From contig JACQWU010000220.1 in NCBI GenBank assembly GCA_016209155.1, forward strand, positions 1 through 5,693: DNA of 5,693 nt, given 5' to 3'. The notes beneath the pieces were generated by a model that ran no database searches, was not told the origin of the DNA, and was given only the letters and a program-made list of their open reading frames with translations. Origin of the DNA: Candidatus Desantisiibacteriota bacterium. GTDB lineage: Bacteria; JACRDZ01. This document shows positions 1,786 through 4,615 of this stretch, piece after piece. A program made the translations under genes and the position numbers. Position 1 is the stretch's first letter. The number at the start of each line of letters is the position of its first letter.

Positions 1786-2706
1786 ATGGCTTTTAAAGAT
1801 TGGTTTTTTGAGACAAGACCTCAATTTCTTATTTTATCCGTAATTTTAGTATTATATGGAAGTGCTGTTGCCTTTTATCATAATAGTTATAACCTGGCTG
1901 CTTTTATTTTACTTATGGTGGGGTTAATCAGCATGCATTTAAGTTGTAATGTATTAAATGATTATTATGATTATAAAAGCGGCATTGACCTGCACACTGC
2001 GCCCACACCATTTTCCGGTGGAAGCGGATTCTTACCATCGGGAAAATTAAATCCATCGGGCGTTTTTATATTAGGAATATCATCAGCTCTAATCGGGATC
2101 GCTATTGGAGTTTATTTTTGCATCACAGTAAGCTGGGCCTTACTGCCAATTGTTATTGCCGGTGCAATTTCTGTTCTTTTTTATAACACTGTTTTAACAA
2201 AAATAATGTTAGGAGAAATATTTGCGGGGTTTGGGCTGGGATTGCTTCCGATTATGGGGATTTATTTCGTATATACCGGCAGATATGATATTCAGGCTGT
2301 ATTTGCCGGAGTACCGCCGTTTTTATTAGTGTTTAATCTTTTACTTTTAAATGAATTTCCAGATGCGGAGGCAGATAAAAAAGGCGGAAGGAAACATATT
2401 GTAATTGTTTTGGGGCCCAAGATAGCCGCATGGATATATACAATATTTAATCTTTCGGTCTATATCTGGGTTATATTTGGTATTCTATCTGGAATTATGC
2501 CGGTTTGGACTCTATTATGTCTTTTAACATTACCGCTGGCATTTAAAGCTATAGAGGGAGCATTAAAATTCAGAGACAACAGAGAAAAATTTATCCCGGC
2601 GCAGGGCGCTAACGTCGGGATGGTTCTCATTACTCAAGTTTTACTGGCAATAGGTTATTTAATTTCACATTGGAACAATATAACATGTGAATGTCAATTT
2701 CTATAA
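1786..2706 (+). CDS. UbiA-family membrane prenyltransferase (MenA-like)
   Basis: Integral membrane enzyme that transfers a polyprenyl chain from its diphosphate to an aromatic acceptor; the MenA-like branch makes demethylmenaquinone from 1,4-dihydroxy-2-naphthoate. The 306-aa protein is hydrophobic throughout, with about eight or nine membrane segments. Both Mg2+/diphosphate Asp motifs are present: NDYYDYKSGID at residues 58-68 and NEFPDAEADKKGGRKHI at 189-205. The segment after motif 1 (FSGGSGFLPSGKL) is typical of MenA-like members. Start: AAAAAGGAA ends 6 bp before ATG 1786. The last residues (ITCECQFL) follow the point where a 28-bp duplicated segment ends. The copy at 4251-4278 continues in the same frame to ITISCCNSK and a stop, so this gene's tail was probably replaced when the downstream island inserted. 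Loss of 6-7 terminal residues should not harm the catalytic core. The aromatic substrate is not certain. Confidence 0.85.
   Translation: MAFKDWFFETRPQFLILSVILVLYGSAVAFYHNSYNLAAFILLMVGLISMHLSCNVLNDYYDYKSGIDLHTAPTPFSGGSGFLPSGKLNPSGVFILGISSALIGIAIGVYFCITVSWALLPIVIAGAISVLFYNTVLTKIMLGEIFAGFGLGLLPIMGIYFVYTGRYDIQAVFAGVPPFLLVFNLLLLNEFPDAEADKKGGRKHIVIVLGPKIAAWIYTIFNLSVYIWVIFGILSGIMPVWTLLCLLTLPLAFKAIEGALKFRDNREKFIPAQGANVGMVLITQVLLAIGYLISHWNNITCECQFL
2658..2685 (+). repeat. 28-bp direct repeat, left copy (inside prenyltransferase 3' end)
   Basis: This 28-bp stretch, codons 291-300 of the prenyltransferase, is repeated perfectly at 4251-4278. The copies diverge at once beyond both ends (2657 A against 4250 G; 2686 T against 4279 A). 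It marks the left border of the inserted segment carrying the kinase pair, the HNH-like fragment and the MITE. Confidence 0.85.
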
Positions 2707-2848
2707 AAATGCGATATCCCAAAACATAACAATGACACTTTCTTCCTTGCACTTATATATGATGTTTGGTAATATTAACGATATTCGATATTTTGAATTA
2801 ATTCTAATAAAGGAACCAGATTTATAACTCAAATATAAACTAAAATAG

Positions 2849-2854
2849 TATAAT
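2849..2854 (+). promoter_or_regulatory. Possible -10 element for the kinase gene pair
   Basis: A perfect TATAAT lies 25 bp before the kinase start codon. The -35 position at 17-bp spacing (AACTCA, 2826-2831) is poor, so this is a tentative promoter. The interval 2707-2879 holds no convincing gene. It has a small AT-rich dyad around the repeated GATATT near 2780-2793 that might be an operator. Confidence 0.35.
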
Positions 2855-2879
2855 TTAATTATGGACTCCATATAAAATA

Positions 2880-3461
2880 ATGAATAATAAAAATGCTTAT
2901 ATAATCGCAGGTCCAAATGGATCAGGGAAAACGACATTTGCTATGAAGTTTTTACCTGAATATATAAAATGTCCTTATTTTGTAAATGCGGATCTTATTG
3001 CTCAGGGATTATCTCCCTTTTCTCCGCAACAAGCTGCAATCAAAGCAGGGAAACTTGTTTTGGAACAGATTCATGAATTGGTAAATAAAAACCTTGATTT
3101 TAGTTTTGAATCAACTCTTTCAGGTAGAACATATATAAAACATTTTAAATATTTAAAAGATAAAGGATACAAATTACATATTTTTTTCTTATGGATTCCA
3201 ACTTCAGAATTGGCAATTGCCCGTATTAAAGAAAGAGTTGCTGACGGTGGACATAATATTCCAACTCAGGATATCATACGTCGATTCGAAAGAAGTATTT
3301 CTAATTTTTTTAAAATTTATAAACCTTTATCAGATTCATGGATATTGTTCAATAATGCGGGAATAGAACCTAAATTAATTGCCCAAAAAAATGGAGACAT
3401 GAAAATTATCGATAAACTATTATTGGATAAAATATTAAACAAACTCGGAGTAAAAATATGA
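2880..3461 (+). CDS. Compact zeta-toxin-like P-loop kinase
   Basis: P-loop NTPase of the zeta/PezT-like kinase group, whose studied members phosphorylate UDP-N-acetylglucosamine and so block cell-wall synthesis. The 193-aa protein has Walker A GPNGSGKTT at residues 11-19 (K17), then FVNADLIAQGLSPF with D38 (position of the zeta catalytic/substrate Asp), FSFESTLSG with E77, LAIARIKERV (107-120 region) and GGHNIPTQDIIRRF with R134/R135. These follow the zeta order, but the protein is shorter than plasmid zeta toxins (roughly 250-290 aa). The SD before ATG 2880 is poor; an ATG at 2861 stops after four codons. Its stop overlaps the next start (ATGA), so the two genes are translationally coupled. 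It lies inside a segment inserted into the prenyltransferase gene. Toxicity and substrate are inferred from family; it may be a different small-molecule kinase. Confidence 0.8.
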   Translation: MNNKNAYIIAGPNGSGKTTFAMKFLPEYIKCPYFVNADLIAQGLSPFSPQQAAIKAGKLVLEQIHELVNKNLDFSFESTLSGRTYIKHFKYLKDKGYKLHIFFLWIPTSELAIARIKERVADGGHNIPTQDIIRRFERSISNFFKIYKPLSDSWILFNNAGIEPKLIAQKNGDMKIIDKLLLDKILNKLGVKI

Positions 3462-3601
3462 AAAAGAAAATATCATTACATGAAAAAGCGGAGCTTGCAT
3501 TTAAAGAAGCGATAAAAGAAGTCATAATAAAACATAAAAAAAACGGTCGTCCTCTTGTGGTTTGGGAAAATGGTAAGGTTAAAAGAATCACTGTAAATTA
3601 A
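3458..3601 (+). CDS. 47-aa basic protein coupled to the kinase; putative antitoxin
   Basis: Small gene starting at ATG 3458, four bases overlapping the kinase stop, with GGAG at 3447-3450 just upstream as SD. The 47-aa product is Lys-rich: an N-terminal helix (about residues 6-25, HEKAELAFKEAIKEVI), a turn with KKNGRP (28-32), then a short strand pair (LVVWENGKVKRITV, 33-46). Proteins of this shape, with a helix followed by G(R)P-hydrophobic-W-x-x-G-K-V, are commonly found just downstream of zeta-like kinases. By position and size it is the likely antitoxin or regulator. This is an inference from context; the known epsilon and PezA antitoxins are different proteins and are encoded upstream of their toxins. 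No terminator is visible after it, and 3602-3665 holds no gene. Confidence 0.7.
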   Translation: MKKKISLHEKAELAFKEAIKEVIIKHKKNGRPLVVWENGKVKRITVN

Positions 3602-3665
3602 AATTAGCATAATCCATTAATTACGATGCGGTTGATAGTTATTTGCAGCAAAAGAAGCTAATTTT

Positions 3666-3941
3666 TCATCCAGCTGCCGCAATCAAAATCTGTTCTTTTG
3701 TTAATATTCCGCCTTTTTCCGGCACAGCTGAAAGAGCTAACCAAATAGGAAAGCTAATAGTATGGACACCAGAATATACTAAACGATGATGTGTTTTACA
3801 AAAAACCACTAAGTTCCTAAGATCGTCGGGTGTATCGATAATAGGTTTTGTTTTTTCCAATTTTTGAATTTCTTTCTGTAATTTTGTCGAATCAACCGCC
3901 TTGATGACATAGTCTTCATCATAAAACTCTATAGCTTTCAA
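3666..3941 (-). pseudogene. HNH-like gene fragment, 5' end cut by the MITE
   Basis: An open frame of 91 codons on the minus strand. Near the middle it has DDLRNLVVFCKTHHRLVYSGVHTISFPIWLA (about residues 39-69). The arrangement 'N-L-x-x-x-C-x-x-H-H' followed by G-x-H resembles the last part of an HNH/zinc-binding fold, in which LCxxHH closes the metal site. The expected upstream CxxC and the His of the beta-beta-alpha motif are missing. The only start is TTG at 3939-3941, immediately at the edge of the MITE's terminal repeat, with a stop codon two codons further upstream and no SD. The likely reading is a C-terminal remnant truncated by the MITE. A short intact protein cannot be ruled out, and the HNH assignment is tentative. 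Confidence 0.45.
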
Positions 3942-3961
3942 ACTCTAACTCCGCTACCTGG

Positions 3962-4126
3962 TTACGTAATATGTATACCCACCTTTGCTAATAGGTTTTC
4001 AGACGATACTGTTATGGCCTCAACCGAGTATAGATAATAATGTTCTTTAAGATAACGCAGTTCTGTACCCGGACTTCTGTACTTCAATGCCCATTCAGGA
4101 TGTGGTGACTTATTTACTTTTTTCAT
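3962..4126 (-). pseudogene. Transposase remnant inside the MITE (54 codons)
   Basis: Minus-strand frame from ATG 4126 with a strong SD (GGAGGG at 4132-4137). The 54-aa product begins MKKVNKSPHPEWALKYRSPG and goes on to TELRYLKEHYYLYSV. HPEWALKxxxxGTELRxxxxxYYLY is the N-terminal signature I associate with a group of large DDE transposases close to IS1634/IS4-type elements. Full-length members run to several hundred residues. Here about 35 N-terminal residues run straight into a short tail ending LLAKVGIHIT, possibly the original C-terminus, so an internal deletion removed the catalytic domain. The TAA stop lies within the left inverted repeat. It is non-functional as a transposase but might still be translated as a short DNA-binding inhibitor. 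The family assignment is from memory of the motif. Confidence 0.65.
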
Positions 4127-4178
4127 TTAACTTCCCTCCAATCTTAGATTACGTATTTACGTAATATAATATTACCAT

Positions 4179-4216
4179 AAAAAAACCGGGATGCAATATC
4201 CCAGCTAATTTTTTTT
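4179..4216. terminator. Bidirectional terminator inside the MITE
   Basis: A 7-bp stem including one G-T pair (4186-4192 with 4198-4204) and a 5-base loop has seven A's on its left (4179-4185, a T-run for minus-strand transcripts) and eight T's on its right (4209-4216). It would stop minus-strand transcription entering from the tRNA side before the transposase remnant, and also plus-strand transcription leaving the element. Such insulation is common in insertion sequences. Confidence 0.6.
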
Positions 4217-4250
4217 GAAAATATTACGTAATTATGTAGCGGAGTTAGAG

Positions 4251-4278
4251 TTTAATTTCACATTGGAACAATATAACA
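4251..4278 (+). repeat. 28-bp direct repeat, right copy, with the displaced prenyltransferase tail
   Basis: Perfect copy of 2658-2685. Read in the prenyltransferase frame, it continues past the repeat to 4302 as LISHWNNITISCCNSK followed by TGA (4300-4302). This is probably the original 3' end of the prenyltransferase gene, now separated from it by about 1.6 kb. The copy's first three bases are also the last three bases of the MITE's right inverted repeat. Confidence 0.8.
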
Positions 4279-4323
4279 ATATCCTGCTGTAATTCAAAGT
4301 GAAGTCCGGTGATGATACGCATT

Positions 4324-4605
4324 TTAACGAAGCTCATTAATCATGTTTACAGTGAATCCCGAATCATCTTTACCCTGCATACCCCGAAGGTGTAGTTGAA
4401 CAAAACGTGCAAAATTCTGTAGAGGCAAACTTAAACTTCCTGCAAGATAAATAATAGAAGGCATAACCTGATAAATATCATTCACAGTCACCGCATAACC
4501 CTGGTTATCGCTATAACCAGTAGATAAAATAAAAATAAGCCTGTGGGATTTACCTCCAACAGGCTTATCTTTGCAAGAAACATTGACGACTAACTTGTTC
4601 GCCAA
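4324..4605 (-). pseudogene. Open frame, possible beta-hydroxyacid dehydrogenase C-terminal remnant
   Basis: The frame is open from a TTG at 4605, just after the 3' end of tRNA-Asn, to TAA at 4324-4326 (93 codons). Its first third is encoded by the tRNA's terminator hairpin and has no SD, so translation from there is unlikely. The distal part (about residues 38-93) ends with LSLPLQNFARFVQLHLRG, GKDDSGFTVNMINELR. This resembles the end of 3-hydroxyisobutyrate/tartronate-semialdehyde reductase-type dehydrogenases (LPL...G..D.S....I..L). NDIYQ occurs where the family has the catalytic K-D-L, so the Lys would be lost. I read it as a decayed gene end that lost its 5' part. The resemblance is weak, and it could be non-coding. 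Confidence 0.35.
4501..4568 (-). terminator. Rho-independent terminator for tRNA-Asn, plus adjacent hairpin
   Basis: Reading leftward from the tRNA, a 10-bp perfect stem (4559-4568 with 4535-4544) with an inner 3-bp extension is followed by a T-rich tract (TTTTTATTTTAT on the minus strand, within 4524-4535). It begins about 48 bp after the encoded CCA. A second perfect hairpin of 8-bp stem and 4-base loop (4501-4520) follows. Together they form a convincing transcription end for tRNA-Asn. Confidence 0.7.
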
Positions 4606-4615
4606 TGGTTAAATT

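What the first reader, a model, noticed from the sequence alone, without database searches (positions are those of the whole stretch)
2658..4302. A 28-bp duplication shows that about 1.6 kb was inserted into the 3' end of the prenyltransferase gene and swapped its C-terminus
Seen: 2658-2685 and 4251-4278 are identical. From the left copy the prenyltransferase frame ends ITCECQFL; from the right copy the same frame ends ITISCCNSK at 4302. Inferred: the right-hand tail is ancestral and the segment between (kinase pair, HNH-like fragment, MITE) came in, duplicating the target. Established: elements of the IS1634 type can create unusually long and variable target duplications. The right copy directly abuts the MITE end, but the left copy has no inverted repeat beside it, so a second IS copy may have been lost, or recombination followed.
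Basis: partly seen in the sequence, partly recalled or inferred. Interest (0 to 1): 0.62.

Follow-up and report, generated by a model that had tools for sequence, protein, structure and literature searches.

The report
One-sided IS1634-type insertion into ubiA
About 1.6 kb of DNA carrying a toxin-like kinase gene pair landed in the last few codons of a membrane prenyltransferase gene, copying 28 bp of the target and swapping the protein's last seven residues; it carries a recognisable transposon end on one side only, which suggests, but does not prove, that the transposase used a makeshift second end.

Summary
The 28-bp repeat (2658-2685 = 4251-4278) occurs nowhere else in the host assembly. 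Two island-free relatives (L037, L008) carry the prenyltransferase (UbiA/PF01040) gene running straight from the repeat into the right-hand tail. Joining the two window flanks restores an ungapped alignment through the end of the gene (97/115 identical to L037; the 16 bases after the repeat match 16/16). So the ISCCNSK tail is ancestral, and 2686-4250 is an insert that replaced it with CECQFL.

The small element at 3940-4253 is an internally deleted IS1634-family element: inverted repeats, transposase N-terminus, and C-terminus whose stop codon lies in the terminal repeat all match full-length relatives (L070, L104). Its outer end abuts the right repeat exactly. Its inner end truncates an HNH gene whose other half is absent. 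No inverted repeat, even a weak one, was detected at 2686.

Best reading: this single IS1634-type end and a surrogate left end moved the kinase pair, HNH fragment and MITE together (ISEcp1-like one-ended transposition), with an IS1634-type long target duplication. Decay of a composite transposon remains a live rival. The insertion is firm; the mechanism is inference.

The parts
1786..2706 (+). UbiA-family prenyltransferase gene as it reads now, 306 aa, ending CECQFL-stop inside the insert
   Evidence: PF01040, 100.9 bits, residues 19-255; ORF
2658..2685 (+). left copy of the 28-bp target duplication (in the original gene)
2686..2706 (+). new C-terminal codons and stop supplied by the insert (CECQFL*); also the left border of the insert, without any inverted repeat
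2686..4250 (.). inserted segment (1565 bp)
   Evidence: absent from L037 and L008; joining the flanks restores an ungapped alignment
2723..3605 (+). kinase cassette with its upstream region; paralogue on host contig C198 (89% over 3150-3605, 77% over 2723-3076)
2880..3461 (+). zeta-toxin-like P-loop kinase, 193 aa
   Evidence: PF06414 Zeta_toxin 35.0 bits, cut-off 22.3
3458..3601 (+). 47-aa partner overlapping the kinase stop (ATGA); the same pair order is seen in G041
   Evidence: ORF; G041 homologous pair; no family match
3666..3941 (-). 3' fragment of an HNH endonuclease gene, 5' part missing, cut at the MITE's left end
   Evidence: phrog_8048 positions 207-261 of 273; G026 homologue has about 70 more N-terminal residues
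3940..4253 (.). IS1634-family MITE, an internal-deletion derivative; canonical ends probably C3943 and G4250
   Evidence: inverted repeats; homology to L070 and L104
3962..4126 (-). 54-aa remnant of the transposase: N-terminal 35 aa joined to the C-terminal residues; its stop lies in the inner box of the terminal repeat
   Evidence: 55% identity over 31 aa to the G057 transposase; C-termini and stop placement compared by eye
4251..4278 (+). right copy of the 28-bp target duplication
4279..4302 (+). detached ancestral 3' end of the prenyltransferase gene (ISCCNSK*)
   Evidence: 16/16 bases (4279-4294) identical to L037 directly after the repeat

Best explanation
Segment 2686-4250 was inserted into the last codons of a ubiA-type gene, and 28 bp of target were duplicated (shown by comparison). 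The insertion was most likely catalysed by an IS1634-family transposase acting on one genuine terminal repeat, the outer (right) end of a MITE of that family that had earlier inserted into an HNH gene next to a zeta-like kinase pair. For its other end the transposase used a surrogate site at 2686 instead of the MITE's own left repeat at 3940, so the neighbouring kinase pair and HNH fragment moved along (inferred). The prenyltransferase lost ISCCNSK and gained CECQFL from the insert. The change lies outside the PF01040 domain and the gene probably stays functional (inferred).
For: Island-free relatives show the ancestral gene end, and joining the flanks restores it. The repeat is exclusive to this locus. 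The genuine end abuts the right repeat copy exactly. The HNH gene is truncated at the MITE's inner end and its 5' part is not on the other side, as expected if DNA left of the MITE plus the MITE moved and DNA right of it did not. The MITE belongs to the IS1634 group. The family includes elements with 8-514 bp duplications (PMC2266710). ISEcp1/ISEc9 moves neighbouring DNA with one true repeat and a second repeat matching at as few as 3 of 14 positions (PMC12116815). One event explains both borders.
Against: The surrogate end at 2686 has no detectable similarity to the terminal repeat (4 of 14 by eye, about chance; rank 2412 of 11328) and starts with T, not C. No donor site, second copy or full-length transposase of this subgroup was found in the (79% complete) host assembly. 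No paper held reports one-ended transposition together with IS1634. A full-length relative (L104) appears to have a 5-bp duplication, and L070 none detectable, so a 28-bp duplication is not typical of this subgroup (L104 read by eye).
Confidence: 0.5

Rival explanations
1. Decayed composite transposon: two IS1634-type copies flanked the kinase-HNH segment, the whole unit inserted with a 28-bp duplication, and the left copy was later deleted, leaving only the right MITE.
Against: The deletion would have to start at the very first base of the left copy: nothing of the terminal repeat (CTCTAACTCC...) remains next to the left repeat copy. No second copy of the element exists in the assembly.
Confidence: 0.25
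2. Two-step history: the IS/MITE inserted alone into ubiA with a 28-bp duplication; then recombination with a second copy in the HNH gene, or a nested insertion or deletion, replaced its left flank by the kinase-HNH segment.
For: IS1634-type elements do make long duplications on their own (PMC2266710); the HNH truncation shows that a copy once sat in an HNH gene.
Against: Simple recombination between two copies keeps an element copy next to the left repeat; here none remains, so an additional event with a breakpoint exactly at the element's edge is needed.
Confidence: 0.17
3. Assembly artefact: the metagenome assembly joined two loci through a short repeat.
For: Host is a 352-contig metagenome assembly, 79% complete, and the window is a whole contig; the reads are not available here.
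Against: The 28-mer is unique to these two sites. The outer flanks belong together by comparison with relatives. With the left flank entering and the right tail leaving the 28-mer, the remaining graph path can only be a loop that is the insert.
Confidence: 0.07

Closest known systems
ISEcp1/ISEc9 transposition units (IS1380 family)
   Same: One genuine inverted repeat next to one copy of the target duplication, other border with a poor or unrecognisable repeat, neighbouring genes carried along (PMC12116815).
   Different: IS1634 family, not IS1380; the genuine end belongs to a MITE without transposase; 28-bp instead of 5-bp duplication; the surrogate end scores at chance.
IS1634 / IS1549 elements (IS1634 family)
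   Same: Family of the transposase remnant and terminal repeats; reported long, variable target duplications of 8-514 bp (PMC2266710).
   Different: Those are complete elements with both repeats at the borders; here one border has none and there is cargo.
Mobile insertion cassettes (MIC231 and others)
   Same: Transposase-less units carrying unrelated genes, moved in trans, with a target duplication (PMC3913671).
   Different: [quoted passage not shown] here only one border has a repeat.
Zeta-toxin-like kinase with small downstream partner
   Same: P-loop kinase of PF06414 with an overlapping small ORF, a pair found in another genome (G041) and twice in the host.
   Different: Toxin-antitoxin function of this pair has not been shown.

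Membership tests
Target-site duplication of an insertion | Direct repeats flank the insert and are present once in the empty site | tested here: met
   L037 and L008 have a single copy leading into the right-hand tail
IS1634-family MITE | Terminal inverted repeats homologous to those of a full-length IS1634-family element | tested here: met
   Window ends CTCTAACTCCG...TACGTAATAT against L070 ends CTCTAACTCTG...TACGTAATAG; L070 transposase NF033559 157.1 bits, cut-off 100
IS1634-family MITE | Internal deletion of the transposase gene | tested here: met
   54-aa remnant joins the N-terminus (55% over 31 aa to G057) to the C-terminal residues with the stop in the terminal repeat, as in L070 and L104 (the C-terminus compared by eye)
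IS1634-family MITE | Own target duplication at both of its ends | tested here: not met
   Left flank is an HNH gene, right flank is ubiA; no duplication across the MITE itself
ISEcp1-like one-ended transposition unit | One genuine inverted repeat abutting one copy of the target duplication | tested here: met
   MITE right end abuts 4251
ISEcp1-like one-ended transposition unit | Surrogate second repeat next to the other copy | tested here: inconclusive
   No similarity above chance at 2686; in ISEcp1 as few as 3 matching bases suffice (PMC12116815)
ISEcp1-like one-ended transposition unit | Transposition with the surrogate end demonstrated | not testable with these tools
   needs an experiment
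Composite transposon | IS copies at both borders | tested here: not met
   none at 2686
Mobile insertion cassette | Inverted repeats at both borders of the cassette | tested here: not met
   only at 4250

The most novel reading that the evidence does not exclude
An IS1634-family end, here on a transposase-less MITE, can mobilise neighbouring genes by one-ended transposition with an arbitrary second end, making a long target duplication. The family's variable duplications and its ability to pick up flanking genes would then both follow from loosely coupled strand transfer by the two ends.
Probability: 0.35. Interest if true: 0.5.

Novelty: new variant of a known kind. Interest (0 to 1): 0.33.

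Why it matters
The insertion gives a clear case of a mobile segment grafting a new C-terminus onto a core membrane enzyme while carrying a toxin-like gene pair. If the one-ended reading is right, IS1634-type elements join ISEcp1 as carriers of neighbouring genes, and the unexplained long duplications of that family (no model, according to PMC2266710) would gain a testable one: loosely coupled insertion of the two ends.

Tried and rejected
Dispersed-repeat explanation: rejected, the 28-mer is unique to the locus. Left tail ancestral: rejected, no meaningful match to L037. A degenerate terminal repeat at 2686: not found with two matrices. Another copy of the MITE or its donor in the host: none; the host IS1634-family gene on C43 is disrupted and unrelated to the MITE at DNA level. 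Relatives of the transposase or HNH fragment in viral contigs: none; in plasmids: none; in phages only distant HNH matches. Papers on IS1634 (PMC93511) and IS1549 (PMC106989) are not held, so their data are cited through PMC2266710. First-pass alignment by eye of 2686 with the inner TACGTAAT box looked suggestive but rested on an off-by-one coordinate and was dropped.

Full report
OBSERVATION. The 28-bp repeat at 2658-2685 and 4251-4278 is exact and ends on both sides at the next base. In the host genome, a metagenome assembly of 3.08 Mb in 352 contigs in which the window is the whole contig C145, it occurs nowhere else even with three mismatches. The prenyltransferase ORF 1786-2706 (UbiA, PF01040, 100.9 bits over residues 19-255) ends IT-CECQFL. 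The same frame from the right copy gives IT-ISCCNSK and stops at 4302. The left copy ends exactly on a codon boundary (ACA, 2683-2685), so the insert supplies six new residues and a stop.

TEST OF THE ANCESTRAL TAIL. The nearest held relatives carrying the gene are in other genera of the same phylum: G003 (the same contig region as L037, JAQUKH010000020.1; 83% protein identity) and G001 (L008; 84%). In L037 the gene continues through the single copy of the repeat directly into ISCCNF-stop. Window 4251-4294 matches L037 5873-5916 at 90.9%, and the 16 bases after the repeat (4279-4294) are identical. Joining window 2586-2685 to 4279 onward gives an ungapped alignment of 97/115 to L037 and 88/114 to L008 through the end of the gene; the left tail gives nothing. 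This shows that the right-hand tail is ancestral and that 2686-4250 is inserted. Beyond the stop codon gene order differs. The relatives have a small cytochrome-like gene and hydrogenase genes next, and the host's homologue of that small gene is on another contig, C100 (51%).

WHAT THE INSERT IS MADE OF. (a) 2686-2722, no assignment. (b) 2723-3605, a cassette with a zeta-toxin-like kinase (PF06414, 35.0 bits) and an overlapping 47-aa ORF. A paralogue lies on host contig C198, 89% identical over 3150-3605, but its kinase is broken by a deletion. G041 has the same pair (69% DNA identity). (c) 3666-3941 minus strand, the 3' part of an HNH endonuclease gene. It matches positions 207-261 of 273 in phrog_8048, and the G026 homologue has about 70 further residues at the N-terminus. 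The fragment stops at the MITE. (d) 3940-4253, the MITE, which folds far better than shuffles because of its repeats (z -5.95).

THE MITE IS AN IS1634-FAMILY DERIVATIVE. Its 54-aa ORF matches the N-terminus of a full-length transposase in G057 (55% over 31 aa). That transposase scores 157.1 bits on NF033559 (IS1634 family, cut-off 100) and its element has the same two-box terminal repeats (CTCTAACTC... and TACGTAATA). A second relative, L104, has a similar arrangement. In all three the transposase ends in ...IT-stop and the stop codon lies in the inner box of the terminal repeat (sequence comparison by eye). The element is therefore an internal deletion that kept both ends. The ends agree with the family consensus C-----YT (PMC2266710) if the element is taken as 3943-4250, which puts the right repeat copy exactly next to the terminal base.

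HOW IT MOST LIKELY HAPPENED. Shown: insertion, 28-bp duplication, a genuine end at the right border, no repeat at the left border, and an HNH gene cut at the MITE's inner side with its other part missing. Inferred: the MITE had inserted in an HNH gene beside the kinase cassette; a transposase acting in trans then used the outer MITE end and an unrelated sequence at 2686 as its two ends and inserted everything between them into ubiA. This is how ISEcp1/ISEc9 moves neighbouring genes; the second repeat there may share as few as 3 of 14 bases (PMC12116815). IS1634 and IS1549 are the members known for long, variable duplications, 8 to 514 bp, for which that paper says no model exists, although 5-6 bp is usual (PMC2266710). 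The weak point is that the surrogate end is indistinguishable from chance, which is compatible with, but does not support, this reading. A composite transposon that lost its left copy, or a two-step history, needs a breakpoint exactly at the edge of an element copy; I rank both lower but do not exclude them. An assembly artefact is unlikely because the 28-mer has only these two places and the outer flanks demonstrably belong together.

STATUS. The insertion and the swapped C-terminus: confidence about 0.97. The IS1634-family attribution: about 0.9. One-ended transposition as the mechanism: about 0.5. The phenomenon is a new variant of a known kind (an IS end moving neighbouring genes), of moderate interest.

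Noticed in passing
1-332: Exact 107-bp direct repeat (1-107, 226-332), each with a 29-bp hairpin arm pair; between the copies lies a partial, diverged copy of the start of the hydrogenase maturation protease gene (114-215 resembles 429-529, about 90%). The hairpin sequence occurs, with up to 3 mismatches, on seven other host contigs, so it is a dispersed palindromic repeat.
   Followed up: partly
1041-1720: VapC-like PIN toxin and FitA-like antitoxin genes in the order toxin first, between the hydrogenase maturation protease and ubiA; a second toxin-like module at the same locus.
   Followed up: no
L049 (host contig C198) 6428-7187: Paralogue of the kinase cassette whose kinase gene is broken by a deletion of about 70-90 bp.
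   Followed up: partly
4303-4612: No homology to the relatives' downstream region; a 93-aa minus-strand ORF without any family match next to tRNA-Asn, with a terminator-like inverted repeat at 4531-4572.
   Followed up: no
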